Shown here piece after piece: positions 13,395 through 31,272 of a DNA stretch of 64,000 bases. Both the position numbers and the translations under genes were made by a program. The notes below the pieces were generated by a model, which was not told where the DNA came from, made no database searches, and saw only the letters and a program-made list of their open reading frames with translations. This stretch comes from Flavobacterium lipolyticum (lineage in GTDB: Bacteria; Bacteroidota; Bacteroidia; Flavobacteriales; Flavobacteriaceae): the NCBI RefSeq assembly GCF_020905335.1, contig NZ_JAJJMN010000001.1, positions 1,488,001-1,552,000 of the forward strand, given 5' to 3'. Position 1 is the stretch's first letter; every line of letters begins with the position of its first letter.

Positions 13395-13431
13395 TGCAAA
13401 AATCTTGCACAATTTATGCGAAAATATTGCT
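13395..13431. promoter_or_regulatory. Double TGCA-N7-TGCA operator upstream of susC1
   Basis: Two copies of the same motif lie on the same face of the helix: TGCA-N7-TGCA at 13395-13409 and TGCG-N7-TGCT at 13417-13431, 22 bases apart start to start. The second copy ends 20 bases before the TAnnTTTG element, so a bound protein would cover the -33 region. The motif recurs upstream of susC2, the DeoR gene and the GH20 gene and is read here as the operator of that DeoR protein. Confidence 0.65.
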
Positions 13432-13451
13432 AACAATGAATATAATTTATA

Positions 13452-13459
13452 TATATTTG
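13452..13459 (+). promoter_or_regulatory. Bacteroidota-type -7 element for the susC1 operon
   Basis: TATATTTG matches the TAnnTTTG -7 consensus of the Bacteroidota primary sigma factor, with TTG-containing sequence 22 bases upstream. Transcription would start near 13466, giving a leader of about 320 bases before the susC1 start. That leader holds a hairpin at 13688-13712 (ATTCGT with ACGAAT) and a second at about 13723-13739 (TTTCAC with GTGAAA). Confidence 0.55.
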
Positions 13460-13501
13460 ACCGCTGATTAAAAAACACAACACCTTAAAAAACACTTAAT
13501 T

Positions 13502-13630
13502 ATGAAAAAACACCCCGTTTTAAAGGGCACACCGCCAACAATGATTCTTACAAATAGTCACGAATCATTTGCAATAAAAAAGCAAAACACTAAAATACCA
13601 CAAGCAGATTCCTTATTCTTTAAAGCGTAA
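13502..13630 (+). CDS. Possible short leader ORF in the susC1 5' region (42 codons)
   Basis: An ATG at 13502, about 36 bases after the predicted transcription start, opens a 42-codon frame beginning MKKHPVLKGT and ending SLFFKA. In the +1 frame the DNA stays open from 13578 to a stop at 13688 and would read LKRNTKATVKTTTVV near its end, so one coding region broken by a frameshift is possible. Neither peptide is familiar. There is no signal peptide or known motif, and the amino-acid bias could simply reflect AT-rich sequence. I list it because the region is otherwise an unexplained leader of 320 bases. Confidence 0.2.
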   Translation: MKKHPVLKGTPPTMILTNSHESFAIKKQNTKIPQADSLFFKA

Positions 13631-13788
13631 TACTAAAGCTACAGTAAAGACCACAACTGTAGTAAAAGCAACAGGATTCTATTTCTAATAATTCGTCTTC
13701 AGGAAACGAATTAAGAAACTCTTTCACCTCACCAGTGAAACAAAAAAACAATCAATCAATAAACCTCAACTAACTAAAAACCCAAAGA

Positions 13789-16700
13789 ATGAAACAAACT
13801 ATTTTATTATTTATGTTCTTTTTTGCGCTGCAGGTCACCCAGGCGCAAGTAAAAACCATCAAAGGAACAGTGACCGACACTAATGGCATCTCGATACCGG
13901 GAGCATCCATAAGCATAAAAGAAGAAAAAAGAGGTACTACAACCGATTTTGACGGTAAATTCTCTATCGACGTACAAGAAGGAAAAACACTGACGATCTC
14001 TTTTTTAGGATTAGAACCTCAAAATATTCTTGTAGGCAATTCTAACAACCTCAACATAAAACTAAAAGAAGCTGCAGCAACAGCCCTTTCCGGTGTGGTA
14101 GTTACTGCATTAGGCCTAAAAAGAGAAAGAAAGGAACTGGGCTATTCTTTTCAGGACGTAAAAGGAAAAGATTTGGCGGACAATCCCACAATAAGTGTTG
14201 CCCAATCTTTGTATGGAAAAGTGGCGGGTGTTAACATTTCTCAAACCACAGGAGGTATTGGAGGCAGTTCCAGAATTGTAATAAGAGGGAACCGATCTAT
14301 AAGCGGAGACAACCAGCCCCTTTATGTTGTAGACGGAGTTACCTTGGGAAACACCGGACTTGGAAGCATAACAGACAATAAATCGACCAGATACTCCGAA
14401 GGAAGAGACAATGGAGATGGATTGTCCAGTATAAATACAGATGACATTGAAAATATTTCTGTGCTAAAAGGAGGAGCTGCCAGTGCTCTTTACGGAGAAC
14501 GTGGCGCCAATGGTGTCATTGTTATTACTACCAAAAAAGGAAAAAGAAACTCTTTGAAAGTCGATTGGAACAGCACTACTACTTTTGACCAAATCAATTC
14601 AAGATACAAAGACTACCAAAAAGAATATGGCACAGGAACAAATGGAACACTGCCAAATACTGATGAAATCGCAAATGGACGAAATGCTACTACCAGCGCC
14701 TGGGGTCCACGATTCGGATCTCCCGGCAACACTTCAGTTCGAATCTTTGACGGATCCTACAAACCTTACGAATACATGAAAAACAACTTTAAAGATTTTT
14801 TCAGAACAGCCGTAACCGTAAACAACAGCATTAGTCTTTCAGGCGGTGGAGATAATACCACCTTCAGATTAAACTATTCCAATATTGATGCTACAGATAT
14901 CGTTCCTAAAACCGGTCTTAAACGAAATACATTCACATTAGGTGTCAATTCTCAAATCAAAAAACTGACATTAGATGCCAAATTCAATTACATTACAGAA
15001 AACACCAACAACAGACCCGCCCTTTCAGACGATGCCGGCAATCTTGGATTGACAGTAACCTCACTCGCACCAAACTTCAATCAAGCCTGGTTAAAAAATT
15101 ATGAAGATCCAAACGGCAACTACTATCAATGGAACTCCGACCCAAATAAATTAAATCCTTACTTTGTATTAGACGAAAACAAAAATGTAACCGAAAAACA
15201 CCGAATATTAGGGAATTTCAGCGCAACCTATGCCTTTACCGATTGGCTAAGCGCTACCGGAAGAGCAGGAATTGATCGATTTACATTTGAAAGTTCTGAT
15301 TTTGTCAACGAAGGAACCACCTGGACTGCAAGGCAGAATGGATCTTTAATCAACAGCAGTACAACCTTTCAGGAATACAACGCCGAAGCCTTATTAAATG
15401 CTCAGAAATCGTTCGGCGATTTTAATCTGTCAGTGGGCGTTGGTGCTAACCAAAGAAACACCCAAAGAATTGTTTCGGGGGTAGCTCTTTCGGACATGTT
15501 TTTTAATGGAGTAAACAAACAATCTAACTTTCTATCCTCAGTCTTAAGTCCGAAAACAAATGATGAAATATTAGTACGCTCTTTATACACCTACGTGAGA
15601 GCCAATTACAAAAACTATTTATTCCTTGATTTTACGGGACGTAACGACTGGAACTCAACTCTGGCCTCAGCCATAACCTCTCTTGATAATAATAACTATT
15701 CCTATTTTTATCCGTCTGTATCTTCCAGTTTTATTTTTACTGATGGATTGGACATTAAGAATGACGTGTTAACTTTTGGAAAGATCAGAGCCTCCTGGGC
15801 AACTACCGCAAAAGCACTGGAAGCTCCATACGCCACTTTATTAAATTACAACATACAAGCCAAACCTTTGTTAGGAAACCCTATCGGTTCGATTAACAAT
15901 AATATTATTCCAAACAACAACCTAAAACCAGAACTTACCACCAGCTACGAAGCCGGAATTGATTTAGGATTCTTTAAAAATCGCTTACAAGTTGATTTAT
16001 CGTATTACTACACCAGAACAAAAAATCAACTGATTGTATTAAACACCTCACAAGCTTCCGGTTTTGTTGGCGTTAATGCAAACGCGGGTACGGTTGAAAA
16101 CAAAGGTTTTGAAGCCTTAATAACCGCCGGAATTTTCAGAAAACCAGATGGCTTTAATTGGGACATCACCTTCAATTTTGCTAAAAATGACAACAAATTA
16201 ATCGAGCTAACAGACAAAACCGACCTACAAGTGATCTCGAATGCAAGATGGGCCGGAGCTCAAATTGTTGCAAAAGTCGGACAAAGTACTACAGAGATTT
16301 ACGGTAAAAAATTCCAAAGATCTCCTGATGGACAAATTCTTATAGGAGCAAACGGAAATCCTCTGTTGACATCAACTTTGGAAAGCTTTGGAAAAGCGGC
16401 ACCTGATTGGGTTGGAGGGGTTACCAATGAGTTCTCCTACAAAGGAATTAGTCTTAGAGCCAATCTTGACATGAAATTTGGAGGCAAACTATACTCCATG
16501 ACTAACGCTAACGCTGCTGCTGCAGGACTGTCCAGCAGAACTCTTGACGGAAGAGATGAATTTAATGCGTGGTTTGCGCAGCAGATCGCCTCCGGAAAAA
16601 CACCAGCAGATATCGCTAAATTACAACCTGGTGCGGGACTTATTGTAGACGGTGTAAATGAAGTTAGAGACACTAACGGTAATGTAACCGGATACAAAGA

Positions 16701-17025
16701 CAACACCACACCGGTGAATCCGCAAACTTACTGGAGAAGCTTATATGGAGACGATACCACACCGGAACCCTTTATTTATGATGCCTCTTATGTTAAACTA
16801 AGAGAACTCTCTATAGGTTATGATTTTCCAAAAAAATGGTTAAAAGGTACCGGGTTTGAAAGATTTAAATTCTCTGTTATTGCCCGAAATTTATGGACTA
16901 TTTACTCTAAAGTCCCAAACATTGATCCGGAATCAACTTACACAAGCGGTAATGGACAAGGTTTCGAATACGGCTCTTTACCTTACAGAAGGTCTTACGG
17001 CTTTAACCTACAATTATCATTCTAA
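13789..17025 (+). CDS. SusC/RagA-family TonB-linked outer-membrane transporter (first pair)
   Basis: 1078 residues. Signal peptide 1-19 (cleavage near VTQAQ). The carboxypeptidase-regulatory-like domain spans about 24-98 (IKGTVTDTNGISIPGASISI). The plug (about 105-255) carries the SusC signatures VVVTALGLKRERKELGYSFQ, IVIRGNRSISGDNQPLYVVD and LKGGAASALYGERGANGVI. The barrel runs to the C-terminal SYGFNLQLSF. SusC proteins import glycans or other large nutrients through the outer membrane with a SusD lid lipoprotein, which follows here after 18 bases. Two TGCA-N7-TGCA operators lie upstream. The cargo is not readable; the locus context (GH20, KDG pathway enzymes) suggests an N-acetylhexosamine-containing or related compound. 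Confidence 0.95.
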   Translation: MKQTILLFMFFFALQVTQAQVKTIKGTVTDTNGISIPGASISIKEEKRGTTTDFDGKFSIDVQEGKTLTISFLGLEPQNILVGNSNNLNIKLKEAAATALSGVVVTALGLKRERKELGYSFQDVKGKDLADNPTISVAQSLYGKVAGVNISQTTGGIGGSSRIVIRGNRSISGDNQPLYVVDGVTLGNTGLGSITDNKSTRYSEGRDNGDGLSSINTDDIENISVLKGGAASALYGERGANGVIVITTKKGKRNSLKVDWNSTTTFDQINSRYKDYQKEYGTGTNGTLPNTDEIANGRNATTSAWGPRFGSPGNTSVRIFDGSYKPYEYMKNNFKDFFRTAVTVNNSISLSGGGDNTTFRLNYSNIDATDIVPKTGLKRNTFTLGVNSQIKKLTLDAKFNYITENTNNRPALSDDAGNLGLTVTSLAPNFNQAWLKNYEDPNGNYYQWNSDPNKLNPYFVLDENKNVTEKHRILGNFSATYAFTDWLSATGRAGIDRFTFESSDFVNEGTTWTARQNGSLINSSTTFQEYNAEALLNAQKSFGDFNLSVGVGANQRNTQRIVSGVALSDMFFNGVNKQSNFLSSVLSPKTNDEILVRSLYTYVRANYKNYLFLDFTGRNDWNSTLASAITSLDNNNYSYFYPSVSSSFIFTDGLDIKNDVLTFGKIRASWATTAKALEAPYATLLNYNIQAKPLLGNPIGSINNNIIPNNNLKPELTTSYEAGIDLGFFKNRLQVDLSYYYTRTKNQLIVLNTSQASGFVGVNANAGTVENKGFEALITAGIFRKPDGFNWDITFNFAKNDNKLIELTDKTDLQVISNARWAGAQIVAKVGQSTTEIYGKKFQRSPDGQILIGANGNPLLTSTLESFGKAAPDWVGGVTNEFSYKGISLRANLDMKFGGKLYSMTNANAAAAGLSSRTLDGRDEFNAWFAQQIASGKTPADIAKLQPGAGLIVDGVNEVRDTNGNVTGYKDNTTPVNPQTYWRSLYGDDTTPEPFIYDASYVKLRELSIGYDFPKKWLKGTGFERFKFSVIARNLWTIYSKVPNIDPESTYTSGNGQGFEYGSLPYRRSYGFNLQLSF

Positions 17026-17043
17026 TCTTTTAACTGCATCGAA

Positions 17044-18546
17044 ATGAAAAAACATATATTACAACTAACAAAATATGCGCTAGGCTTGCTTCTAATGCTT
17101 ACCGTAACTAACTGTGCTGACGATGAACTTTTCAGAGAAACAAACACCAACCCTGAAGGCTTTCAAACCATTGAACCTTACACTCAGATAACCGGAATAC
17201 AAGCCGGTTTATCCGGTGGCTGGTTTGAGCAATGGAGAGCCAACCTTATATATGGAGAAGGTTTTATTCAACATCTTGGCGGATCATGGAGCGTCGCCAA
17301 CTATGGCTCTTTTTATATTTCTAACAGAGAATATCAAGACGCTCTTTGGTTTTCAAACTATGGAGGCGGAATCGTGCGAAACTTAACAGATGTTCTGGAA
17401 AGAACAAAAGGAAAACCAGAATACACCAACTTAAATGCTGTTGCAAAAACACTGAAAGTTATGGTATATCAACGCTTAACCGATTTGTATGGAGATGTTC
17501 CCTATTCTGAAGCAGGCTTTGGCGATTTGCAGAAAATTTTCTATCCGAAATACGACAGTCAGAAAGACATTTATACCGATTTTTTTAAAGTACTAGACGA
17601 AGCACAAAGTCAATTACAATCTGGAACTGATGCAATAAAAGGAGATCTCTTTTACGAAGGCAATGTCTCGAAGTGGAAAAAAATGATCAATTCCTTACGA
17701 TTACGCATTGCTATGAGAATTTCAAAAGTAGACCCGGCATTAGCGAAAGAACAAATCAAAAAAGCGGTTACCAATGGCATCTTTACAAGCAACGACGACA
17801 ACTGCTACATGAAACACGACTCCACCCTTCCGGAAACAGTTGGTGCTTTTAACAATGGAAACGGACTTTCTCAAGCCTTAAAGGGTTCCGGAGGCGTATA
17901 CGATCATCCTACCATCACAATATTAAATATCCTAAAAGATGATCCAAGAAAAAACATATGGTTCAGAGTAAATCCGAAAGGCGTTTACGAAGGCATTAAT
18001 CCGAATGATTACAGATGGGACCACAAACCTGATAGTGACGCTTTATCAACCATTCAACCTTATTTATACGAAAACAGTGCCCCATATCTGCATCTTACTT
18101 ATTCAGAAACACAATTACTTCTGGCAGAAGCTTCTTTCAGAGGACTCCACCCGGGCGACACAAAAGATTATTACAAAAAAGGAATCGAAGCCGGTATCAG
18201 ACAATGGGTTATTTTTAAAGACGCCAGCATTATCAACAACAATGCTATTACTTCTTTTCTTGCTACTAAAAGTCTTACCCCTGGAAAAGAATTGGAAGAA
18301 ATTGCCACACAACAATGGCTCACTTTATTCTTAAACGGAATGGAAGCTTATAGCAATTACAGAAGAACAAACTTCCCCGTGATGATAAAAATTACTCGTG
18401 CAGACTCTGAAACCCGAGGTATTATGCCTACAAGAATACCCTATCCGGTGGAAGAATCGACCAACAACCGAGAAAACTTTTTGGCCGCCAGTGCCAAATA
18501 CAACAACAACAGCTGGCTGGCTAAAGTTTGGTGGGATGTAGATTAA
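17044..18546 (+). CDS. SusD/RagB-family surface lipoprotein (first pair)
   Basis: 500 residues. Lipobox near residue 24 (LLLMLTVTNCADDELFRETN), so it is lipid-anchored and faces outward as in SusD. The SusD-like superfamily segments follow: NTNPEGFQTIEPYTQITGIQ near the mature start, KTLKVMVYQRLTDLYGDVPY (about 138-158) and the TPR-like LLLAEASFRG (about 358-367). The C-terminus has the usual TRIPYPVEES and WWDVD ending. It acts with the SusC protein 18 bases upstream as a lid that captures substrate. A terminator hairpin at 18591-18634 closes this two-gene unit. Confidence 0.94.
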   Translation: MKKHILQLTKYALGLLLMLTVTNCADDELFRETNTNPEGFQTIEPYTQITGIQAGLSGGWFEQWRANLIYGEGFIQHLGGSWSVANYGSFYISNREYQDALWFSNYGGGIVRNLTDVLERTKGKPEYTNLNAVAKTLKVMVYQRLTDLYGDVPYSEAGFGDLQKIFYPKYDSQKDIYTDFFKVLDEAQSQLQSGTDAIKGDLFYEGNVSKWKKMINSLRLRIAMRISKVDPALAKEQIKKAVTNGIFTSNDDNCYMKHDSTLPETVGAFNNGNGLSQALKGSGGVYDHPTITILNILKDDPRKNIWFRVNPKGVYEGINPNDYRWDHKPDSDALSTIQPYLYENSAPYLHLTYSETQLLLAEASFRGLHPGDTKDYYKKGIEAGIRQWVIFKDASIINNNAITSFLATKSLTPGKELEEIATQQWLTLFLNGMEAYSNYRRTNFPVMIKITRADSETRGIMPTRIPYPVEESTNNRENFLAASAKYNNNSWLAKVWWDVD

Positions 18547-18590
18547 ACCGCTAAACCCTAACCCAACACCACTCCTTTCATGTTGATCCT

Positions 18591-18634
18591 AATACCATTC
18601 GTAATTTATATTGAATTATGAATGGTATTTTTTT
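18591..18634 (+). terminator. Terminator after susD1
   Basis: AATACCATTC and GAATGGTATT form a long stem extended inward by AATT/AATT, followed by TTTTTT. It separates the first susCD unit from the second. The remainder of the 365-base gap (18547-18911) holds the operator pair and promoter of susC2; no gene is seen. Confidence 0.8.
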
Positions 18635-18806
18635 AGGCTTTTCCGATCAAAAACAAGCAAAATCACCCGTTCATACCCTTCTAAAAATACGAATTTTAAG
18701 ATTAAAACGAATTCTTTCCCTAAAAACTCATTCTGCAAAATTTTCTCAGAACACCTTTAGAAACCTCATTTCTTTTGGATTATAAAAACACTTCAGAAAA
18801 AAATAT

Positions 18807-18841
18807 TGCAAAAAAAATGCACTTTATGCAAAAAAAATGCA
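18807..18841. promoter_or_regulatory. Double TGCA-N7-TGCA operator upstream of susC2
   Basis: Two perfect copies: TGCA-N7-TGCA at 18807-18821 and again at 18827-18841, 20 bases apart start to start, both with an all-A spacer. The second copy ends 19 bases before the TATATTTG -7 element at 18861-18868, so it covers the -33 region just as at susC1. Confidence 0.7.
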
Positions 18842-18860
18842 AATGAATAAAAATTATCTA

Positions 18861-18868
18861 TATATTTG
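18861..18868 (+). promoter_or_regulatory. Bacteroidota-type -7 element for susC2
   Basis: TATATTTG fits the TAnnTTTG consensus and sits in the same sequence setting as at susC1 (TATATTTGA or TATATTTGAT, then CGC). Transcription would start near 18875. A six-codon ORF (18895-18915, MKTKVL) ends in TGA overlapping the susC2 ATG at 18912; coupling of the two is possible but unproven. Confidence 0.55.
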
Positions 18869-18911
18869 ATCGCCAATAAAAACCAAAATAAAACATGAAA
18901 ACCAAAGTATT

Positions 18912-21900
18912 ATGAAAGCAAAGCTAATTTCATTAGTATTTATTGGGGGAGTAATCTTCTCAGTAAATGCAAAAGAGACTGCAATTAAAACGCACCTCTT
19001 TGAACAAAAAAGCAGTCAGATTGAAATTTCGGGCCAGGTCATTGGTCAGGACGATGGAATGCCAATTGCCGGAGCTACTATTTATGCTAAAAGCAATTCG
19101 AAAACAGCTACTATAACCGATGAAACAGGAAAATTTAAACTAAATGTTCCGGAAAATGAAACTCACATCATCATTTCTTACATGGGCTATGGAACTTTAG
19201 AGTATAAACTAGATAAGGTCACAGATGTAGTAATAAGTTTAAAACCTGCCGAAAATGTACTGGAGCAGGTATTAGTAACCGCATTAGGGGTTAAAAAAAG
19301 TAACAAAGCAGTTGCCTATGCTGTTACCGAATTAAAAGGAACTGAATTCACCAAGGCAAAAGAAACCAATATCACAAACGCTTTAGTAGGTAAAATTGCC
19401 GGGGTAAACGTAAGCAGCTCTGCAACAGGCGCAAACGGATCAACCAGGGTGATCATTCGTGGAAATGGTTCCCTAAACGGAAACAACCAGCCCATGTATG
19501 TGGTAAACGACTTACCAATTGACAATACACAACTCAATCTGCCTGGAACCGGAAACGGAGCAGGCTCACCAAGAATGAACGTCGATAGAGGTGACGGTAC
19601 CTCAGTTATCAATCCCGATGACATTAAAAGCATCACGGTATTAAAAGGAGGAACTGCAGCTGCTCTTTATGGAGCAAATGCTGCCAATGGTGTAATTCTT
19701 ATTCAAACCAAAAGAGGAGGCGCACAAAAGGGTATCGGTGTAGAACTCAATTCCTCTTATACTTTTGAAACCCCGGCTGTGATCCCGGACTGGCAGTACG
19801 AGTACGGAGCCGGAGATGCAGGACAAAAACCATTAACGAAAGAAAAAGCTATAGAATTTGGTCGCTGGTCGTGGGGAGCAAAAATAGACGGAACTGATGT
19901 TATTCAATTTGACGGAGTAAAAAGACCTTATGTTGCTCAAAAAAACAACATCAAAAACTTCTACGAAACCGGAACAACATTTATCAATTCGATCGCACTT
20001 TCAGGAGGAAACGAAAAAGCCTCAGGACGTCTTTCCTTCTCTAATACAGACAACCAGTCTATTGTACCAAATTCTGATTTCAACCGTAAAAGTGTCAACA
20101 TTGCCAGCAATGTAAACTTAACCAATTGGTTAAAATTTGATGTAGTCGCACAATACAATATAGAGAAATCAAACAACAGAATTACGGTTTCCGATGCAGA
20201 AGCCAACCCGAACTGGGCCACCTATCTGCTTGCTAACACTGTAGACATTAGAAATCTTTCACCTGGTTATGACGAAAACGGTAAAGAAATAGCATGGAAT
20301 CCTGTTCCGGTTGCAACAAACCCTTACTTCACCATCAATAAAATCAAAAACAGGGACACTAAAAATCGTTTCCTTGGAATGTTAAACGTAAAATTAAACT
20401 TTACACCCGAACTATTTCTTCAGGGAAGAATTGGACAGGATTACACAGATTACGATTACTTTGGATACATTCCAAAGACAAGCTTAAACAATCCAATTGG
20501 ATACGCACAAGGTTCCCGCGTAAAGCTGTCAAACCTGAACTCAGAAGCTATACTAAACTATACCAAAAAGAACTTGTATAAAGATTTTTCTCTGAATGCA
20601 TTACTTGGAGTAAACTCCCGTACAACCTTACGCGATGAAGTAAGCCTTGAGGGCTCAAATTTTGTCCTTGATGATTTTTTCGCTCCAACCAATTTTACTA
20701 CTTTATCGTATACTTATCCTTATGGAAAAACAAAAACAAACTCTGTTTATGCTTCCGCAGATCTGGATTACAAAAATGTAATTTTCCTAAACGTTACAGG
20801 ACGTCAGGATTGGTTTTCAACCCTATCTAAAGAAAACAATAAAGTGTTCTACCCCTCCATAGGAACAAGTATCATTCTTTCTGATATTGTAAAAATGCCG
20901 GAGTGGATTTCATTTACAAAACTGAGATCTTCATGGGCCCAGGTTGGAGGTGCTACACCAGATCCATACGCCCTAAATCGATCGTATTCAATGGTTCAGG
21001 GAGGACACAAAAACCAACATGTACAAGTCCCTACAGGAACAAGAGTACCAAATCCTACATTAAGCCCCTTAACTTCAACAACCTTTGAAATTGGAACCGA
21101 TATGGGCTTCTTTAACAATCGTTTGAATGTTGACTTTGCCTGGTACAACCGTGCTACCACAAATGACATTGTGCAAACGACCATTTCAAATGCATCAGGT
21201 GCAAATACGGCTTTGCTAAACATTGGAAAAATGAGAAATAAAGGAGTCGAATTATTAATTAGCAGTAAAATCATAAACAATAGTAATTTCTCCTGGGACG
21301 CAAGTATCAACGGAGCCTATAACAAAAATACCGTTGAAGCACTTACAGATCAATTAAACTCGATTACGATGGCAATTTCTGTAAACGATTATGCCCTTAT
21401 TACGAGTGACGTAGGACGCCCTTACAGCACTATTAAAGGGTATAAACCGCTTAAAGATGCAAACGGAAATACTGTTTACAATGTAAGTGGCAATACCGCA
21501 ACCGTAGCAAGAGGTCCGCTTCAGGAGCTGGGACAGGGTGTTCATCCTTGGACAGCAGGACTTAATAATGAATTTAAATACAAAAACATATCTTTAAGCT
21601 TCCTGATCGACGGTAAATTTGGTGGTAGTTTATACTCCGGAACTGATTTATATGGAACCCGTATGGGATTAACCAAATTAACACTTGAAGGTCGTGAAAA
21701 CGGCTTACCAATTAAGGGTGTTGATACTAAAGGAAATCCGGTAGATATGGTAATTGCTCCTAAAGACCTTAGAAATTATTATGATGGTCTAAAAAACATT
21801 TCATCAGAATTTGTCTACGATGCAAGCTTTATAAAACTAAGACAAGTTATTATTGGATATCAATTCCCTATTGAAAAAATAAGCAGTTTATCAAAACTTC

Positions 21901-22067: not shown

Positions 22068-22101
22068 ACACCCCCTATCCCTAATTTTTAAACTAAAAGA
22101 C

Positions 22102-23634: not shown

Positions 23635-23657
23635 AAATCCATTGCTATAATTAATTT

Positions 23658-23805: not shown

Positions 23806-23856
23806 AATCAATTTTATACGAATTACACTCTGCGGAGTTACTAATACAACAGATAA

Positions 23857-25176
23857 ATGAGCATTTTAATTCTTACGGCATGCATTGCGTTTCTAATCGT
23901 CCAGATCGCCTGGTTTAAAATCAATCCGTTTATTGCCTTTATCATAACAGCTTTACTAGCAGGTCTTTTTTTAGGCCTGCCAATAAATACTTTATCACAA
24001 ACTGTACAAAAAGGTTTGGGCGAAATGTTAGGATCTATTACGCTGATTATTGTTTTCGGAACCTGTATTGGTAAACTTACCGTTTCATCAGGCGCCGCCA
24101 ATGTTATTGCCAAAACGGTTATGGGATGGACGGGTAAAAAATACGTTCGCCTTGGCTTAATGATTACCGGATTTATTGTTGGGATACCTCTATTTTATAG
24201 TGTTGGTTTTGTTTTGTTAGTACCCTTAATCTTCTCAGTAGCCCATCAATTTAAGCTGTCAAAAGTATATCTGGGTATTCCAATGCTGGCGTCGCTTTCA
24301 GTAGCACACGGTTTCTTACCCCCACATCCGTCTCCAATGGCTTTAAGCAGTATTTTTAATGCCGATCTTGGACTCGTTTTAGTTTATGGAATTATCATCG
24401 CCATACCAACCATTTTTATTGCAGGTCTATTGTTTTCGAATTTACTCAAAAACATCAAAACCGAATCGGATCACGAAATCTTAAACGTTGAAGAAGTTGC
24501 AAACGAAGGCAAACTTCCAAGCTTTTCATTGAGTCTGTTCTCTGCTTTATTTCCGGTTTTTGGATTAACAGTGACTTCGATAGCACCTATGATTTCTAAA
24601 AATGAAACTCTGGCTGATATCTGCAAAACAATTGGAGAACCAAGCATGATTATGCTGATCTCTTTACTGATCTGTACTTACACTTTAGGCATCAGAATGA
24701 ACCGCAGCATTACCTCAGTAATGGAGGACTATGCCGTTGCGATCAAAGATGTTGCCTTAATCGTTTTAATTGTTGGAGGGGCCGGCGGTCTGAAAGAAGT
24801 CATGATTGTAAGCGGTGTAAACGAAACCATCGTTACAGCTTTAACACAAATCAACATTCATCCTTATTTATTGGCATGGATGATGGCAGCGATCATTCGT
24901 GTTTGCGTAGGTTCAGCAACAGCGGCCGGACTAATGACCGCCACGGTTCTATTGCCTTTATTGCAAACTGCCGGACTTGACCCTAACCTATTAGTACTGT
25001 CTGTTGGAGCAGGAAGTTTAATGTGCTCTCACGTAAACGACCCAAGCTTTTGGATGTTCAAAGAATATTTTAACATCAGCCTGAAAGATACTTTCAAATC
25101 ATGGACCGTTATGGAATCCTTAGTATCCGTTTTAGGAATCATTTTCATTTTTATTTTAAACACTATAATACATTAA
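23857..25176 (+). CDS. GntP-family (gluconate:proton symporter type) permease
   Basis: 439 residues, the usual length of GntP transporters, with about 12 predicted membrane helices. Family marks are the N-terminal FKINPFIAFIITALLAGLFL, the GKLTVSSGAANVIAKTVMGW segment (about 70-90), HGFLPPHPSPMAL (about 150-165) and the C-terminal VGAGSLMCSHVNDPSFWMFK (about 388-407). GntP proteins take up gluconate or other sugar acids, or D-serine (DsdX branch), across the inner membrane. Here it sits four bases ahead of a RidA gene and upstream of a kinase/aldolase/PLP-enzyme set. A sugar acid, amino-sugar acid or beta-hydroxy amino acid is therefore the likely cargo. The exact substrate is inference. Confidence 0.92.
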   Translation: MSILILTACIAFLIVQIAWFKINPFIAFIITALLAGLFLGLPINTLSQTVQKGLGEMLGSITLIIVFGTCIGKLTVSSGAANVIAKTVMGWTGKKYVRLGLMITGFIVGIPLFYSVGFVLLVPLIFSVAHQFKLSKVYLGIPMLASLSVAHGFLPPHPSPMALSSIFNADLGLVLVYGIIIAIPTIFIAGLLFSNLLKNIKTESDHEILNVEEVANEGKLPSFSLSLFSALFPVFGLTVTSIAPMISKNETLADICKTIGEPSMIMLISLLICTYTLGIRMNRSITSVMEDYAVAIKDVALIVLIVGGAGGLKEVMIVSGVNETIVTALTQINIHPYLLAWMMAAIIRVCVGSATAAGLMTATVLLPLLQTAGLDPNLLVLSVGAGSLMCSHVNDPSFWMFKEYFNISLKDTFKSWTVMESLVSVLGIIFIFILNTIIH

Positions 25177-25180
25177 TATC

Positions 25181-25648
25181 ATGAATTTATTACCACAAGA
25201 AAAATTTGAAACCCTTGGATTGTCCCTTCCTCCGGCGCCTCAGCCTCTAGGAATATACAAGCCCTATTTAGTTGATGGTAAATATTTATACCTTTCAGGT
25301 CACGGGCCTGTAAGAGACGACAAATCCTTAATCATTGGCCGAATTGGTGATGACATGGACATCGAAGAAGGAAAATTAGCCGCAAGGCAAGTCGGATTAA
25401 CCATGCTTTCTACAATTGTAACCAATTTTGGAAGCCTGAACAAAGTAAAAAAAGTTATAAAAGTACTCGGAATGGTAAACTGCAATGGCGAGTTCTTAAG
25501 ACATCCATACGTTATAAACGGCTGCAGTGAATTATTTGCCGAAGTATGGGGACCCGAAAACGGAATTGGAGTACGAAGCGCCGTAGGAATGGGCTCTTTA
25601 CCGGACAATATTCCCGTTGAAGTAGAAGCCGTTTTCGAATTATATTAA
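25181..25648 (+). CDS. RidA-family enamine/imine deaminase
   Basis: 155 residues, a little longer than the 130-residue core. The N-terminal half has KYLYLSGHGPVRDD, the strand and turn bordering the RidA pocket. The C-terminal GIGVRSAVGMGSLPDNIPVE contains the conserved Arg that binds the substrate carboxylate and the Gly-rich strand. RidA proteins hydrolyse reactive 2-aminoacrylate-type enamines and imines released by PLP-dependent dehydratases. Such an enzyme is encoded three genes downstream at 28015. The gene starts four bases after the permease stop, so the two are co-translated. The last 19 codons are repeated, slightly diverged, in the tandem duplication that follows. Confidence 0.9.
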   Translation: MNLLPQEKFETLGLSLPPAPQPLGIYKPYLVDGKYLYLSGHGPVRDDKSLIIGRIGDDMDIEEGKLAARQVGLTMLSTIVTNFGSLNKVKKVIKVLGMVNCNGEFLRHPYVINGCSELFAEVWGPENGIGVRSAVGMGSLPDNIPVEVEAVFELY

Positions 25649-26268
25649 AAAGTTATGTCACAGATTTTAATGATTAAATTGATTTTTTTGTTTGCAACGA
25701 ATTTCACGAATTAGCACGAATTAATTTTTCACGTACTGATTTGCGAAAATTAGTGAAATTCGTGGCGAAAGAATTAAACACATAGAAACATAGATTTTTT
25801 TACTTCATTGAGAATAACAAAAAAACTCGTTTTCGCACATAGCTGTGTGTATTAATGCAAGTGAAACGCCTATTACAAGGTTTCAAAAACTATGCTCCTA
25901 TGTGTTAAAAAAATAATCGCTAAGTCTATGTATGGGATCTTTACCGGAAAATATTCCTGTTGAAGTAGAAGCCGTTTTCGAATTATATTAAAAAGTTATG
26001 TCACAGATTTTAATGATTAAATTGATTTTTTTGTTTGCAACGAATTTCACGAATTAGCACGAATTAATTTTTCACGCACTGATTTGCGAAAATTAGTGAA
26101 ATTCGTGGCGAAAGAATTAAACACATAGAAACATAGATTTTTTTACTTCATTGAGAATAACAAAAAAACTCGTTTTCGCACATAGCTGTGTGTATTAATG
26201 CAAGTGAAACGCCTATTACAAGGTTTCAAAAACTATGCTTCTATGTGTTAAAAAAATAATCGCTAAGT
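25588..26268. repeat. 338-bp tandem duplication that includes the ridA 3' end
   Basis: Positions 25588-25925 and 25931-26268 match almost base for base at a constant offset of 343. Each unit holds the last 19 ridA codons, an inverted repeat built on CGAATTTCAC (about 25695-25765 in unit 1) and one palindromic repeat element (25776-25906 and 26119-26249). The non-coding parts differ at very few places (for example ACGTACT against ACGCACT). The coding part carries synonymous changes and one Asp-to-Glu change. The region explains most of the 674-base gap between ridA and the kinase gene; no intact gene lies in it. Confidence 0.93.
25932..25991 (+). pseudogene. Duplicated 3' fragment of ridA
   Basis: Twenty codons including the stop reproduce the end of the RidA protein (MGSLPENIPVEVEAVFELY), with Asp changed to Glu and several synonymous changes against 25589-25648. 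It has no upstream part and cannot make a folded protein. It is a by-product of the tandem duplication. Confidence 0.85.
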
Positions 26269-26322
26269 TTATAAATCAATATAATTCCGACAACTATCGG
26301 GAGTGGCAAAAAAACAAAAAAC

Positions 26323-27354
26323 ATGAATACAAATACCTCACAAACAAAAATCGCAACTTTCGGTGAATTATTACTCCGGATGAATGTTGCCAACGGAAAT
26401 CGATTTACACAGGCCAACGAAATAAAAGTTTACGTGGGTGGTGCCGAAGCAAATGTTTGTGTTTTACTTTCCCAACTTGGGATACCCACCGATTACATTA
26501 CCCGATTACCTCAAAATGACTTAGCACAATTGGCTGTAAACGAACTTCAGAAATACAAAGTAAACACCTCGAAATGTGTTTATGGCGGAGACCGTTTAGG
26601 TTTATACTTTGTCGAGGCCGGAAATCAGATCCGACAATCGCAAGTCATTTACGACCGAAGCAATTCGTCCTTTGCGACCATACAAAAAGATCAGATTAAC
26701 TGGGATTTAGCTTTGGCCGATGTGACCCATTTTCATTGGTCCGGAATAAGTCCGGGAGTTTCGCATGAAGCCTCTCTGGTCTGTAAAGAAGCCATTCTCG
26801 CGGCACATCAAAAAGGACTACCTATTTCTTCTGACTTTAACTATCGCTCCAAATTATGGCAATACGGAAAACATCCGTCAGAAGTCATGCCTGATTTACT
26901 TCAATACAGCACCATTACGGTTGCCGATTTAGATGCGATTGAAATTTATTTCGGAATCAAAACTGACGCACGAGAATCTGATGCCGACCGTTTTCAAAAA
27001 ACATACGAATTGTTAAAAGTAAAAATGCCTTTTCTGCAAACACTCGCCATGAGTTTCAGAAAGTCTGACGGACCGGCGCATTTATACAAAGGGTTATTGC
27101 TTCATGAAGGCAATTTCTATCAAACACCCGAACACAAAATACAGGTCGTAACAGACCAAATAGGTTCCGGAGATGCCTTCAACGCAGGATTATTATACGG
27201 ACTGACTCATAAATTATCCGGTCAGGATTGCATCGAGTGGGCAACTGCCTGCGGCGTCATCAAACAAAGTATTCACGGAGATTTTGCCATAAGCACTCCT
27301 GACGAAGTAAATCATTTTATTAAAAATGGCTCAAGTAACAGAATTAACAGATAA
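26323..27354 (+). CDS. kdgK: PfkB-family sugar kinase, probably 2-keto-3-deoxygluconate kinase
   Basis: 343 residues. The ribokinase fold is clear: GGAEANVCVLLSQLG (about 39-53) near the sugar site, DFNYRSKLW (171-179), which is the motif of KDG kinases, and the anion-hole/catalytic motif DQIGSGDAFNAG with Asp284 as the base. The family phosphorylates 2-keto-3-deoxy-D-gluconate with ATP to KDPG in the cytoplasm. The next gene, nine bases downstream, is a KDPG-aldolase-type enzyme, which supports that substrate strongly. KDG from alginate or uronate breakdown would use the same enzyme; the source of KDG here is open. Confidence 0.9.
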   Translation: MNTNTSQTKIATFGELLLRMNVANGNRFTQANEIKVYVGGAEANVCVLLSQLGIPTDYITRLPQNDLAQLAVNELQKYKVNTSKCVYGGDRLGLYFVEAGNQIRQSQVIYDRSNSSFATIQKDQINWDLALADVTHFHWSGISPGVSHEASLVCKEAILAAHQKGLPISSDFNYRSKLWQYGKHPSEVMPDLLQYSTITVADLDAIEIYFGIKTDARESDADRFQKTYELLKVKMPFLQTLAMSFRKSDGPAHLYKGLLLHEGNFYQTPEHKIQVVTDQIGSGDAFNAGLLYGLTHKLSGQDCIEWATACGVIKQSIHGDFAISTPDEVNHFIKNGSSNRINR

Positions 27355-27363
27355 AACAAAAAC

Positions 27364-28011
27364 ATGTACAGCATATTAAAAACGCAAGGTGTACTTCCGT
27401 TAGTGACACAAATCAACATTGAAACAGCCCAAATAGTCTTGCAATCGGCGGCTGATGCTGGCATAAAAATTATCGAGTTTGCCGCTCGTGCAACTGATGC
27501 TAAAGAAGTTTTTAGCCAAATGATCCATTTTAAAAAAGCAAATAATTTAGAGGTTAAGATAGCCGTGGGATCTATATTAAGCGTTCAGGATGCCGAAACC
27601 TTTCATCAGTTAGGAGCAGATTGCATTGTTTGTCCACATACCGATCCGGAAATTGGGAACTATTGTTTCAAAAACAACATTTACTGGATTCCCGGAGCCG
27701 CGACCTTAAATGAAATACTTCATGCCAATAAATTAGGTGCTGAAATTGTAAAACTTTTTCCGGCCGATAAAATTGGTGGTCCCGGATATGTAAAAGCCAT
27801 CAGAGCCCCTTTCCCAAACTTAAAAATAATGCCAACCGGCGGAGTAACCTTAGAAGAAAGCAACCTGAAATCCTGGTTCAAATCAGGAGTGGTTTGCGTT
27901 GGAATTGGTTCTAATTTATTTACTAAAGAAATGATGCTTGATTTAAGTTATGAGCAGTCACTTAAGGCTTTTCAGAATTTAATTGAAGTTGTCAAAAAAA
28001 CAAGAAACTAA
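27364..28011 (+). CDS. eda: KDPG/KHG-type aldolase
   Basis: 215 residues, class I aldolase of the Eda type. The Schiff-base lysine is Lys130 in AEIVKLFPADKIGGPGYVKA, and the catalytic Glu38 lies in IKIIEFAARA (most relatives have EVTLR or EITFR at this place). The phosphate-binding end is MPTGGVTLEE and CVGIGSNLF. It splits 2-keto-3-deoxy-6-phosphogluconate to pyruvate and glyceraldehyde 3-phosphate; the family may also act on 4-hydroxy-2-oxoglutarate. It lies nine bases after the kinase and three bases before the PLP enzyme, a tight operon. EFAAR instead of EVTLR marks a divergent subgroup. Confidence 0.9.
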   Translation: MYSILKTQGVLPLVTQINIETAQIVLQSAADAGIKIIEFAARATDAKEVFSQMIHFKKANNLEVKIAVGSILSVQDAETFHQLGADCIVCPHTDPEIGNYCFKNNIYWIPGAATLNEILHANKLGAEIVKLFPADKIGGPGYVKAIRAPFPNLKIMPTGGVTLEESNLKSWFKSGVVCVGIGSNLFTKEMMLDLSYEQSLKAFQNLIEVVKKTRN

Positions 28012-28014
28012 GTT

Positions 28015-29130
28015 ATGCAAAACAATTGGTGGAAAATTAGCTCCGAAATCCGTGTAGACACCCCATTTTTGGCCGTTTACGAAGATCGCATTCAGACCAA
28101 CATTGAACGTTTGATAGAATCTGTGAACGGTGATACTCAAAAATTAAGACCACACATCAAAACCCATAAAATTGGGGAGATTCTGGACTTGTTTAAAACC
28201 TATAATATCAACAAAGTTAAATGCGCCACAATTGCCGAAGCAGAACTTGCTGCCATACACGAAATTGAAGACGTACTTCTCGCCTATCAGCCTGTAGGCA
28301 ATAAAAAAGAGCGATGGATTTCCTTACTTAAAAAATATCCTGCTACCGCTTTTTCGACCATTGTTGACAATTACGAATCGGCAAAAGCACTGGATATCGC
28401 GGCACATAAAAACAACCTAAAACTTACCCTTTACCTGGATCTGAACTCCGGAATGAACAGAACCGGAATTTCAATTTCTAAAAACTGGGAAGCCCTGATT
28501 GATGAAATCATCAAACTAAAAAATATTCATTTTGCAGGTATTCACCTGTATGATGGTCATCTGAAAGGAGATGTTGAACATCGAAATTCGGTTGCCTCAA
28601 ATATCTTCTTTAGCATCAACGAAGAAATTGAAAGTATACAGAAAAAACTGGGTTATGAATTAAAAATTGTAGCAGGAGGATCTAACACCTTTCCTTTTTA
28701 TGCCACGCAGAAAAATGTAGAATGCAGTCCGGGAACTTTTGTCTTCTGGGATTCCAACTATCAAATTAACTTACCGGAGCAACATTTCGAACCCGCTTTA
28801 GCAATCGTTGGAACCATCATCTCAAAACCAACCGATACTACTTTTTGTATCGACATTGGGTACAAAGCGGTCGCTTCTGAAAATCCTATCGATAAAAGAC
28901 TGGTCATTTTAAATGACAACGACCTGATCCCAATTTCACATTCTGAAGAGCATCTGGTCATCGAAAATCGAGGTAAAAACAACTATGCGATTGGTGATAC
29001 TATTTATGCGCAGCCCTACCACGTTTGCCCCACTTGCGCATTGTACGATTCCGTTCAGGTAGTCAATAGCGAACAGCAGATTTGTGATCAGTGGCTTGTG
29101 GTTGCGAGAAATCGGAAAATTAATATCTAG
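28015..29130 (+). CDS. D-threonine aldolase / D-serine dehydratase-like PLP enzyme
   Basis: 371 residues with the fold-type III layout. The alanine-racemase-like barrel carries the PLP lysine, Lys49, in the signature RPHIKTHK. The C-terminal D-serine-dehydratase-like domain ends with the metal site PYHVCPTC (His and Cys ligands of the Zn or Mn ion). LYLDLNSGMNRTGI and FAGIHLYDGH are other family marks. Members cleave or dehydrate beta-hydroxy D-amino acids (D-threonine aldolase, D-serine dehydratase, D-threo-3-hydroxyaspartate dehydratase). With a RidA, KDG kinase and KDPG aldolase in the same operon, dehydration of D-glucosaminate to KDG plus ammonia is an attractive reaction. This is inference; plain D-serine or D-threonine use is the main alternative. 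Confidence 0.88.
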   Translation: MQNNWWKISSEIRVDTPFLAVYEDRIQTNIERLIESVNGDTQKLRPHIKTHKIGEILDLFKTYNINKVKCATIAEAELAAIHEIEDVLLAYQPVGNKKERWISLLKKYPATAFSTIVDNYESAKALDIAAHKNNLKLTLYLDLNSGMNRTGISISKNWEALIDEIIKLKNIHFAGIHLYDGHLKGDVEHRNSVASNIFFSINEEIESIQKKLGYELKIVAGGSNTFPFYATQKNVECSPGTFVFWDSNYQINLPEQHFEPALAIVGTIISKPTDTTFCIDIGYKAVASENPIDKRLVILNDNDLIPISHSEEHLVIENRGKNNYAIGDTIYAQPYHVCPTCALYDSVQVVNSEQQICDQWLVVARNRKINI

Positions 29131-29284
29131 TGAAGAGGTATAGAGTCAAGAAGATAGAATCAAGAAAATAGAATCAAGAAGAAAGAGAATAGAACCAAGA
29201 GAATAGAGAAAAGAAAAAAGACCATAGACCTTGTAGAAAACCTCAGAACCTTAGAACCTCAGAACCTTAGAACCTTAAAATACT
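29131..29284. repeat. Low-complexity intergenic repeats
   Basis: Two simple repeat families fill the 154-base gap: purine-rich copies of GAATCAAGAA or GAATAGA, then four copies of the CCTCAGAA/CCTTAGAA type. No gene is visible. Such word repeats are frequent between flavobacterial genes and probably grow by slippage. Confidence 0.7.
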
Positions 29285-30355
29285 ATGTTTATAATAGATG
29301 CCCATTTAGACCTTAGCATGAATGCGATGGAATGGAACAGAGACCTACGAAACGATGTTGCCACCTTACGCCATTTAGAAAAAGGTATGACAGACAAACC
29401 CGATCGCGAACGTGCCACTGTTTCTTTTCCTGATTTGCGAAAAGGAAATATTGGAATTGTGGTCGCCACTCAAATTGCACGATTTGTAAAACCCGACAGT
29501 CTTATTCCCGGCTGGAACTCTCCTGAGCAGGCATGGGCACAAACACAAGGGCAGCTCGTCTGGTACAAAGCCATGGAAGAAGCCGGAGAAATAACTCCTA
29601 TTACAGACAAAAAATCGCTACTGAAACAGATTGATTTATGGAATGACGGAACCCCAAATGATAAAAAACCGATTGGTTATATTTTAAGTCTAGAAGGTGC
29701 CGATTCTATTATCGATATTTCTTACTTGCAAAAAGCACATCAATACGGATTACGCGCTATCGGACCCGCACATTACGGTCCTGGCCGATACGCAAACGGA
29801 ACAGATGCCACCGGAAAAATGCAGCAAAACGGACTTGATTTACTCAAAGAAATGGAACGTCTGAACATTATTCTGGATGCCACTCATTTGTGTGATGATG
29901 CTTTCTGGCAGGCATTAGACCACTACAACGGACCGGTCTGGGCAAGCCACAACAATTGCCGAAGTCTGGTAGATCACAACCGTCAATACAGCGACGAAAT
30001 GATCAAAGCTTTGATTTCACGAGGAGCCGTTATAGGAGGAGCTTTAGACGCCTGGATGCTGGTTCCGAATTGGGAAAGAGGAGTTTCAACCCCACAGGGA
30101 ACTAACTGCAATCTTGAAACTGTTTTCAGACACATGGATCACATCTGTCAATTGGCCGGAAATGCCAATCATATAGGAGTAGGTTCTGATCTTGATGGTG
30201 CTTTTGGTACAGAGCAATCTCCGTACGATTTAAACACTATTGCCGATTTGCAGAAACTAGTTCTGATCTTTAAAAATCATGGCTATTCAGATGAAGATTT
30301 AAATAAAATTTTTCATCAAAACTGGATCAACTTTTTACTAAAAAACTGGGATTAA
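29285..30355 (+). CDS. Membrane-dipeptidase-family (peptidase M19) zinc hydrolase
   Basis: 356 residues without a signal peptide, so probably cytoplasmic. The binuclear metal site of the M19/renal dipeptidase family is visible: DAHLDL at the N-terminus (His and Asp ligands), bridging Glu in LSLEGADS, His in ILDATHLCDD, His in WASHNNCRS, and the catalytic Asp in VGSDLDG. These enzymes cleave dipeptides, often with a D-residue in second place, and belong to the amidohydrolase superfamily, where related members remove acyl groups. In this operon it might release an amino-sugar acid or D-amino acid from an N-acylated or peptidyl form. That is inference. Its stop overlaps the convergent DeoR stop by four bases. 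Confidence 0.9.
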   Translation: MFIIDAHLDLSMNAMEWNRDLRNDVATLRHLEKGMTDKPDRERATVSFPDLRKGNIGIVVATQIARFVKPDSLIPGWNSPEQAWAQTQGQLVWYKAMEEAGEITPITDKKSLLKQIDLWNDGTPNDKKPIGYILSLEGADSIIDISYLQKAHQYGLRAIGPAHYGPGRYANGTDATGKMQQNGLDLLKEMERLNIILDATHLCDDAFWQALDHYNGPVWASHNNCRSLVDHNRQYSDEMIKALISRGAVIGGALDAWMLVPNWERGVSTPQGTNCNLETVFRHMDHICQLAGNANHIGVGSDLDGAFGTEQSPYDLNTIADLQKLVLIFKNHGYSDEDLNKIFHQNWINFLLKNWD

Positions 30356-31128
30356 ACAAAAACTAAACTGGGAACTGCCTTCTTATACGACTGTAGTTTT
30401 TCGTGATCGGGATCTACTTCCGTCACCACGTAATCAACCTCGGATAAGTTGGCAATTTTCATTTTTAGAACTGTATCCAGTTTTTCAGAAATCGTAAGAA
30501 TGGCTGTTTTTTCAGAAGCCTGAATCATCGCTTTTTTGACCTGAACTGTTTCCCAGTCCGAATCTGAAAAGCCGCCTTCGATGTCTAAGGCATTGGTTCC
30601 TAATATTAACAAATCGACTTTAATATTTGCCAGCTGATTGTAAACATCACCGCTCACACACATTTGGCTGTACGACGAAATGCTGCCGCCAATCATGATA
30701 ATTTTAACATTGGGTTTGTCCAGAAGTTCAACCGCCGATAAAACGGTAACGGTAAAAATCGTCAGGTTTAAAGTGTCAGGAATCAATCGGATAAACTCTC
30801 TGATGGTTGTTCCGCCACCAAGTAATAAAACCATACCATCACGAAGTAAACCTAAAGTTTTCTGTGCAATGGTTTGTTTTGCTTCTCCTGCATAAGTTTG
30901 ATTGGAAGAAGAATGGTGATAGGCTTTTGTCATCGCACCACCTTTTACTTTAATCAATAAGGACTCTGATTCAAGTTCATTAATATCTCGTCTCACAGTA
31001 TCTTCTGAAACAAATAATTTAGCCGAAAGGGTTTCAAAACTTACACGAGTGTGCAGGTTAATCTCTTTTAAAATAAGATTTTTACGTTCTTCCTTGGTGT
31101 AATTAACCACTTCATTATCATTATTCAT
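30352..31128 (-). CDS. DeoR-family transcriptional regulator
   Basis: 258 residues. The N-terminal winged helix (about 12-68) contains the family signature VSFETLSAKLFVSEDTVRRD followed by INELESESLL and KGGA. The C-terminal DeoR sensor domain (about 85-240) has LLGGGTTIREF, FTVTVLSAVELL and ILGTNALDIEGGFSD, which bind a phosphorylated sugar in characterised members. It converges on the dipeptidase gene and diverges from the GH20 gene. A TGCA-N7-TGCG copy of the shared operator lies in its own promoter, suggesting autoregulation. A keto-deoxy sugar phosphate such as KDPG is a reasonable inducer, as the pathway makes it; this is inference. Confidence 0.93.
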   Translation of the reverse strand: MNNDNEVVNYTKEERKNLILKEINLHTRVSFETLSAKLFVSEDTVRRDINELESESLLIKVKGGAMTKAYHHSSSNQTYAGEAKQTIAQKTLGLLRDGMVLLLGGGTTIREFIRLIPDTLNLTIFTVTVLSAVELLDKPNVKIIMIGGSISSYSQMCVSGDVYNQLANIKVDLLILGTNALDIEGGFSDSDWETVQVKKAMIQASEKTAILTISEKLDTVLKMKIANLSEVDYVVTEVDPDHEKLQSYKKAVPSLVFV

Positions 31129-31166
31129 GCATGTTCAATTTTAGTAAAGCAAATGTAAACAATTAA

Positions 31167-31181
31167 TGCAATATTATTGCG
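31167..31181. promoter_or_regulatory. Operator in the DeoR promoter
   Basis: TGCA-N7-TGCG on the plus strand. On the minus strand a TACATTTG -7 element follows at 31157-31150, so the operator sits directly upstream of it and would block RNA polymerase. The distance to the DeoR start (31128) leaves a short leader of about 15-20 bases. Confidence 0.6.
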
Positions 31182-31251
31182 AAACAAATTAGAATACAGT
31201 GTAATAATAACGTTAATTCATCTATTATAAAGACTTTTAAATACAAATAGC

Positions 31252-31272
31252 ATTTGCAAAAAAAATGCAAAT
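31252..31272. promoter_or_regulatory. Operator upstream of the GH20 gene
   Basis: The best inverted repeat of the set: ATTTGCA-N7-TGCAAAT with an all-A spacer. A TACATTTG -7 element follows at 31287-31294, 15 bases downstream, placing the operator over the promoter spacer. The GH20 start is 24 bases beyond. Confidence 0.7.

What the first reader, a model, noticed from the sequence alone, without database searches (positions are those of the whole stretch)
13395..31272. A shared TGCA-N7-TGCA operator defines a local DeoR regulon
Six copies of one motif occur at four promoters: two copies upstream of susC1 (13395-13409 and 13417-13431), two upstream of susC2 (18807-18821 and 18827-18841), one in the DeoR promoter (31167-31181) and one upstream of the GH20 gene (31252-31272). 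The spacing of exactly seven bases is kept in all six. The best copy is ATTTGCA-N7-TGCAAAT. Each sits 12-20 bases from a TAnnTTTG -7 element, as expected for a repressor. I saw no further copies when reading the other promoters in the window. The two-copy promoters have centre spacings of 22 and 20 bases, about two helical turns, which suggests cooperative binding. This gives a concrete prediction for the regulator and the operon boundaries of the locus.
Basis: partly seen in the sequence, partly recalled or inferred. Interest (0 to 1): 0.72.

Follow-up and report, generated by a model that had tools for sequence, protein, structure and literature searches.

The report
DeoR amino-sugar regulon and its operators
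In Flavobacterium, a repeated DNA site beside a regulator gene looks like that regulator's docking site, and the same site also stands before amino-sugar genes elsewhere in the genome, which suggests one switch for two ways of using chitin sugars.

Summary
The six sites are there, but only four carry TGCA in both arms. Comparative data support a DeoR operator, TTTGCA-N7-TGCAAA with an A/T core. A pair about two helical turns apart precedes susC2 in 13 of 13 loci (both copies intact in 11) and gntP in 8 of 8 loci without SusCD. The deoR- and GH20-proximal sites are kept in 50 and 52 of 54 named loci with DeoR at least 86% identical, but in 1 of 26 below that. A tandem pattern occurs in 20 of 150 genus genomes, all among the 30 holding this deoR.

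"Local" is wrong. A matrix trained only on susC2/gntP sites finds strong sites before nagP-nagB or nagB in 26 of 28 deoR+ promoters and 0 of 14 deoR- promoters, and tandem sites before a GH18 gene in 18 of 27 deoR+ and 0 of 3 deoR-. The cluster's gene families resemble the ong oxidised-chitin pathway (PMC9537276), so one regulator probably joins oxidative and hydrolytic amino-sugar use. At nagP/nagB the sites cover the predicted start, favouring repression. Binding, sign and effector are inferred. Ordinary kind of system; a well-supported new regulon.

The parts
13393..13411 (.). susC1 distal operator, TATGCAAAAATCTTGCACA
   Evidence: matrix 15.1, rank 6; weak alone
13415..13433 (.). susC1 proximal operator, TATGCGAAAATATTGCTAA (degenerate arms)
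   Evidence: matrix 14.2, rank 8; weak alone
13452..13459 (+). -7 element TATATTTG of susC1
   Evidence: read
13568..13586 (.). candidate extra site in susC1 leader, TTTGCAATAAAAAAGCAAA
   Evidence: matrix 15.2, rank 5; within the null
13789..18546 (+). susC1 (13789-17025) and susD1 (17044-18546); not found in the other 29 orthologous regions examined
18805..18823 (.). susC2 distal operator, ATTGCAAAAAAAATGCACT
   Evidence: matrix 19.5, rank 3; conserved
18825..18843 (.). susC2 proximal operator, TATGCAAAAAAAATGCAAA
   Evidence: matrix 20.1, rank 2; conserved
18861..18868 (+). -7 element TATATTTG of susC2
   Evidence: read; conserved
18912..23634 (+). susC2 (18912-22067) and susD2 (22054-23634)
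23857..30355 (+). GntP permease, RidA-like, KDG-kinase-like, KDPG-aldolase-like, fold-type III PLP enzyme (OngC-like), M19 dipeptidase-like
30352..31128 (-). DeoR-family regulator (HTH_DeoR plus DeoRC)
31150..31157 (-). -7 element TACATTTG of deoR
   Evidence: read
31165..31183 (.). deoR operator, AATGCAATATTATTGCGAA
   Evidence: matrix 17.7, rank 4; conserved
31253..31271 (.). GH20 operator, TTTGCAAAAAAAATGCAAA
   Evidence: matrix 21.5, rank 1; conserved
31287..31294 (+). -7 element TACATTTG of GH20
   Evidence: read
31318..33621 (+). GH20 beta-hexosaminidase-like protein with PA14 domain

Best explanation
The motif is the operator of the DeoR-family protein encoded at 30352-31128. A dimer recognises the palindrome TTTGCA-N7-TGCAAA (arms 11 bp apart, A/T-rich core in either orientation), and at the main promoters two dimers bind side by side on one face of the helix. 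The regulon takes in the ong-like cluster (susC1, susC2, deoR, GH20) and, outside the window, the hydrolytic GlcNAc genes nagP-nagB and a GH18 gene. Most likely the protein represses these genes and itself until an amino-sugar phosphate (GlcNAc-6-P or GlcN-6-P the best guess) is bound by its DeoRC domain. Shown by computation: the sites, their conservation, their co-distribution with deoR. Inferred: physical binding, sign of regulation, effector.
For: Tandem sites before susC2 in 13 of 13 and before gntP in 8 of 8 loci, so the operator stays while the first gene changes. Tandem pattern in 20 of 150 genus genomes, all within the 30 with deoR, 24 places, 0 in the reversed control. Matrix trained on susC2/gntP sites and tested on nagP/nagB promoters: 26 of 28 deoR+ at 15 or more, 24 of them as pairs 21 bp apart; 0 of 14 deoR-, best 8.5; 400 shuffles reach 14.7. 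GH18: 18 of 27 deoR+ with tandem sites, 0 of 3 deoR-. Site next to deoR itself in 50 of 54 and next to GH20 in 52 of 54 close named orthologs. Core read toward GH20 A-rich in 28, T-rich in 25. Spacings 20, 21, 22 and, by eye, 30. In Elizabethkingia occulta, another genus with this cluster, a 21-bp pair precedes susC. deoR homologs of other genera lie beside nagB and murQ in 4 of 5. nagP/nagB sites cover the predicted start.
Against: deoR+ genomes are related, so the co-distribution may be one event; no tree-aware test was made. G060 and G117 have deoR but no nagB site; 9 of 27 deoR+ genomes lack GH18 sites; the DeoR clade below 86% identity lacks sites at deoR and GH20 (25 of 26), E. occulta included. 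A DeoR paralog (33%) has similar TTGCAA half-sites before its own gene, so cross-binding or a different binder is possible. susC2, GH20 and GH18 site positions would also suit an activator. No binding or expression data.
Confidence: 0.75

Rival explanations
1. Same protein and operator, but dual action: it activates susC, GH20 and perhaps GH18 from sites near -40/-60 or further upstream, and represses nagP-nagB and itself from sites over the promoter.
For: Predicted centres near -39/-59 (susC2), -40/-62 (susC1), -37 (GH20) and, if TATATTTA is the -7, about -72/-93 (GH18), against -29 (deoR) and the start site (nagP/nagB) (-7 box at -12 to -5 from PMC9723704, passages).
Against: The near sites at susC and GH20 also overlap the expected -33 region, so repression explains them too; start sites are predicted, not mapped.
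Confidence: 0.25
2. Another regulator with a similar half-site, such as a DeoR paralog, binds some or all of these sites.
For: The paralog at C1:495482 has dense TTGCAA half-sites before its own gene and a similar recognition helix (VSEDTIRRDVKEL).
Against: The sites are at the deoR locus itself and in its own promoter, and follow this deoR among genomes. The distribution of the paralog against the sites was not tested.
Confidence: 0.12
3. The A-tracts are chiefly curved promoter DNA (an upstream element for RNA polymerase), not a protein operator.
For: A-rich cores, phased at about two turns.
Against: TGC and GCA arms are conserved, cores flip between A and T and some are mixed, and sites lie downstream of the -7 at nagP/nagB.
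Confidence: 0.04
4. A purely local regulon as first proposed, the distant nagP/nagB and GH18 sites being bound by something else or unused.
For: The strict single-site pattern occurs in the own genome only inside this window, and the own-genome nagP pair is weaker in its 21-bp register (28.3 against up to 41.7).
Against: 26 of 28 against 0 of 14 nagP/nagB promoters, and conserved tandem sites at GH18.
Confidence: 0.06

Closest known systems
DeoR/GlpR-family sugar regulators (models GlpR_Halo, AgaR, SrlR, UlaR and others)
   Same: HTH_DeoR plus DeoRC domains above Pfam cut-offs; gene beside sugar catabolism genes; palindromic site in its own promoter
   Different: No NCBIfam equivalog cut-off is reached (best GlpR_Halo 132 against 300 bits); the operator sequence was not matched to any described one in the papers found
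ong cluster for GlcNAc1A in Pseudoalteromonas prydzensis (PMC9537276: abstract, sections 8, 13, 17 and passages seen)
   Same: By family: TonB-dependent uptake, beta-hexosaminidase, KDG kinase, RidA, fold-type III PLP deaminase-like protein
   Different: DeoR instead of RpiR-family OngR, GntP instead of a sodium solute symporter, SusCD pairs, M19 protein where OngB (D-aminoacylase-like) would be, aldolase included; no AA10 LPMO in the genome. The paper reports complete clusters in Gammaproteobacteria and one Betaproteobacterium
NagC of Escherichia coli (recalled, no call)
   Same: One regulator over several amino-sugar operons with paired operators
   Different: ROK family and a different operator; comparison from memory only
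NanR, ROK family, Bacteroides thetaiotaomicron (PMC3878776, passages seen)
   Same: Predicted regulator of sialic acid and N-acetylglucosamine use in Bacteroidota
   Different: Different protein family
CusS/CusR of the F. johnsoniae chitin utilization locus (PMC5127042, passages seen)
   Same: Regulation of chitin use in the same genus
   Different: Two-component system needed for growth on chitin; a different locus and regulator

Membership tests
DeoR/GlpR-family transcriptional regulator | N-terminal DeoR-type HTH | tested here: met
   PF08220 49 bits, cut-off 21
DeoR/GlpR-family transcriptional regulator | C-terminal DeoRC sensor domain | tested here: met
   PF00455 127.4 bits, cut-off 31.8
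DeoR/GlpR-family transcriptional regulator | Binds a palindromic operator near its targets | tested here: inconclusive
   Conserved palindromes at the predicted targets; binding not testable here
DeoR/GlpR-family transcriptional regulator | Responds to a phosphorylated sugar | not testable with these tools
   Inferred from nagB and murQ neighbours
Any named DeoR equivalog (AgaR, GlpR, UlaR, SrlR and others) | Score above the NCBIfam equivalog cut-off | tested here: not met
   None of the 11 models matched reaches its cut-off
ong cluster (GlcNAc1A catabolism) | KDG kinase, RidA, fold-type III PLP deaminase and beta-hexosaminidase together | tested here: met
   Families only; substrates not tested
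ong cluster (GlcNAc1A catabolism) | OngB, D-aminoacylase-like deacetylase, in the cluster | tested here: not met
   Cluster has an M19 protein instead; 11 PF07969 stretches lie elsewhere in the genome and were not examined for OngB
ong cluster (GlcNAc1A catabolism) | RpiR-family OngR in the cluster | tested here: not met
   The only regulator among the scanned cluster proteins is DeoR
ong cluster (GlcNAc1A catabolism) | AA10 LPMO in the genome | tested here: not met
   PF03067: 0 matches in the own genome (the control rang in 1 of 14 genomes)

The most novel reading that the evidence does not exclude
A DeoR regulon of one Flavobacterium clade couples oxidative (GlcNAc1A/glucosaminate-type) and hydrolytic (GlcNAc) amino-sugar catabolism through one operator, using helically phased tandem sites that block the start site at nagP/nagB and may activate from upstream at susC and GH18. 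The cluster would be an ong-like pathway in Bacteroidota with its own regulator and an M19 protein as deacetylase.
Probability: 0.35. Interest if true: 0.65.

Novelty: new member of a known kind. Interest (0 to 1): 0.5.

Why it matters
It gives a defined operator, a regulator and a short target list that can be tested at once in laboratory flavobacteria, and it links the oxidative and hydrolytic branches of amino-sugar use. It would also explain why deoR persists between a nitrilase gene and sdhB in genomes that lost the cluster (for example G088 and G109): nagP-nagB is still a target. Paper searches listed nothing that describes this regulon; that covers only the held open-licence library and listings.

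Tried and rejected
Exact TGCA-N7-TGCA as the definition: rejected, 52 copies in the genome and two of the six sites missed. A three-mismatch scan of the own genome gave 483 matches against 367 in the control, and its listing lacked a known own-genome site, so it served only for leads. The site 13568-13586 as a seventh operator: not above the null. Sites of 14.8 to 22.2 near roadblock-domain genes in the second clade: left out for lack of a functional link. Strict single-site hits in deoR- genomes exist (111 of 150 genomes have at least one; G051 and G139 looked at), so a single site is no proof. Structure: no solved relative of DeoR at E<=1e-5, no model made. The first deoR-upstream alignment used unoriented loci and was redone. 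One search stopped with a script error and was redone. Earlier working notes gave 19 of 27 for GH18; the recount is 18.

Full report
OBSERVATION. The six places exist. Both arms read TGCA at four; 13417 reads TGCG-N7-TGCT and 31167 reads TGCA-N7-TGCG. Seven bases separate the arms in all six. TAnnTTTG elements stand at 13452, 18861 and 31287 on the + strand and at 31157-31150 on the - strand, 20, 19, 17 and 9 bases from the near site. The own genome has 52 exact copies of the loose motif against 22 for the pattern read backwards, so the motif as written does not define a regulon; the stricter TTGCAWWWWWWWTGCA occurs at three sites of the own genome, all in this window.

STATISTICS IN THE WINDOW. 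A symmetrised matrix from 26 distinct susC2/gntP-promoter sites of other genomes ranks GH20, both susC2 sites and deoR first to fourth of the 64 kb. The susC1 sites rank 6 and 8 and are within the null. Ten positions exceed 12 bits against a null mean of 2.2.

CONTEXT. The cluster encodes two SusCD pairs, a GntP permease, RidA-like, KDG-kinase-like and KDPG-aldolase-like proteins, a PLP enzyme related to D-threonine aldolase, D-3-hydroxyaspartate aldolase and D-serine dehydratase, an M19 dipeptidase-like protein, DeoR and GH20. By family this resembles the ong cluster for GlcNAc1A (PMC9537276; sections 8, 13, 17 and passages seen), which its authors report from Gammaproteobacteria and one Betaproteobacterium. 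It differs in regulator, inner-membrane transporter and presumed deacetylase. The genome has no AA10 LPMO match, so oxidised fragments would come from other organisms, or the substrate is another one.

ORTHOLOGS. Among 150 genus genomes, own included, 30 hold this deoR at 78% identity or more; all other matches are at 40% or less. Gene maps of the 30 regions (28.5-52 kb each) show 13 with SusCD2 and the full set, 8 without SusCD, kinase and aldolase, and 9 with deoR alone or with GH20 whole or in remnant. susC1-susD1 is in none of the other 29 regions; elsewhere in those genomes it was not sought. The susC1 and susC2 promoters align well above 1000 shuffles (94 against a maximum of 59; without the operators 48 against 39), so the susC1 sites were probably copied with the promoter. 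The nearest named genomes are Flavobacterium (F. tructae and Flavobacterium sp. UGB4466, DeoR 100% identical).

OPERATOR CONSERVATION. The tandem pair is recognisable before susC2 in 13 of 13 loci and before gntP in 8 of 8 loci without SusCD. Both copies have intact TGC-N9-GC arms in 11 of 13 and 8 of 8; G004 keeps one and G117 neither in full. Spacing is 20 bp in 17 of those 19 and 21 in two; G004 has 21, and G117 about 30 by eye. In the 80 best named loci kept of 120 relatives (nearly all Flavobacterium, one Elizabethkingia occulta; overlapping in species with the unnamed set) the deoR-proximal site is present in 50 of 54 and the GH20-proximal one in 52 of 54 when DeoR is at least 86% identical, each in 1 of 26 below (threshold 12 bits). 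The two are 88 bp apart in 39 of 50, range 85-90. The GH20-site core is A-rich in 28 and T-rich in 25 of 53, which suits a symmetric protein site. The HTH helix reads VSEDT[VI]RRDINEL in all 30 orthologs.

BEYOND THE LOCUS. The tandem pattern is in 20 of 150 genomes, all deoR+, with none in the reversed control. Of its 24 places, 19 are at the cluster (susC2 or gntP) and 5 before nagB. The matrix trained on susC2/gntP sites alone was then applied to 350 bp before nagP-nagB or nagB. Of 28 primary deoR+ promoters 26 score 15 or more, 24 of them as pairs 21 bp apart; G060 and G117 do not, nor do second nagB copies of G000 and G008. Two deoR+ genomes (G004, G066) had no intact primary nagB and were not tested. 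Of 14 deoR- promoters from 11 genomes none exceeds 8.5; a fifteenth (G031) had no upstream DNA, and fragmentary G094 was not fetched. Shuffles of 350 bp (400, single-base) reach 14.7 for one site and 6.7 for a pair. The deoR+ genomes are related, so these are not independent trials. For the GH18 gene 18 of 27 deoR+ promoters have tandem sites summing to 19 or more (16 have a best site of 14 or more), 9 do not, and 0 of 3 deoR- do; three further hits beyond the locus limit were not examined. In the own genome these sites are C1:284929-284968 (GH18) and C1:3719608-3719626 and 3719640-3719658 (nagP, NagP-like by NF046060 below its cut-off).

OTHER GENERA. Eight of 397 family genomes match at E<=1e-60, five of them from other genera, at 44-47% identity. 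In four of the five, deoR lies divergent from a nagB and next to a murQ, confirmed by NCBIfam. None shows this operator; repeats of TGCTGTTTT stand upstream of several. In Elizabethkingia occulta (DeoR 79%, most of the cluster) a pair 21 bp apart stands just before TACATTTG and susC, with a third site 412 bp further upstream; the search pattern had 16 hits in that genome against 1 in the control, 3 of the 16 being these. Its deoR promoter has no site.

MECHANISM. With the -7 box at -12 to -5 (PMC9723704, passages), sites are centred near -39 and -59 (susC2), -40 and -62 (susC1), -37 (GH20), -29 (deoR), and lie from about -3 (nagB; second-clade nagP) or +4 (own nagP) downstream. Repression fits all of these. 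Activation cannot well explain nagP/nagB or deoR, but is possible at susC, GH20 and GH18. The effector is a guess from the nagB and murQ neighbours.

VERDICT. A real operator and regulon, ordinary in kind and wider than proposed, with a physiologically interesting span. Binding, sign and effector are untested.

Noticed in passing
window 25584-25883 and 25927-26226: A 300-bp direct repeat, 98% identical, spacing 343, spanning the 3' end of the RidA-like gene and the gap before the kinase gene.
   Followed up: partly
window 23660-23810 and 25780-26260: Stretches of the ACACATAGAAACATAG...CTATGTGTT type, partly inverted repeats, in the gaps of the cluster; perhaps a dispersed repeat.
   Followed up: no
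window 13382-13433: Four overlapping matrix hits 11 bp apart before susC1 (13382, 13393, 13404, 13415), a run of half-sites rather than two separate palindromes.
   Followed up: no
L383 (Elizabethkingia occulta), L388-L390: A close relative of the Flavobacterium cluster and deoR in another genus, with tandem sites before susC and one far upstream site; possibly transferred, not tested.
   Followed up: partly
L196:6321 and the G063, G088, G083, G057 regions: A single motif-like site, 14.8 to 22.2 bits, near small roadblock-domain-like genes in the second deoR clade.
   Followed up: partly
L189:7370-7500: A DeoR paralog (33% identical) with many TTGCAA half-sites before its own gene; possible cross-talk.
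   Followed up: no
L270, L271, L272, L274: nagB-deoR-murQ neighbourhoods in other Flavobacteriaceae with TGCTGTTTT repeats upstream, perhaps another amino-sugar operator.
   Followed up: partly
L190:1248-7744: Another DeoR paralog of the own genome beside a SusCD-like pair and MurQ, so perhaps a MurNAc regulator.
   Followed up: no
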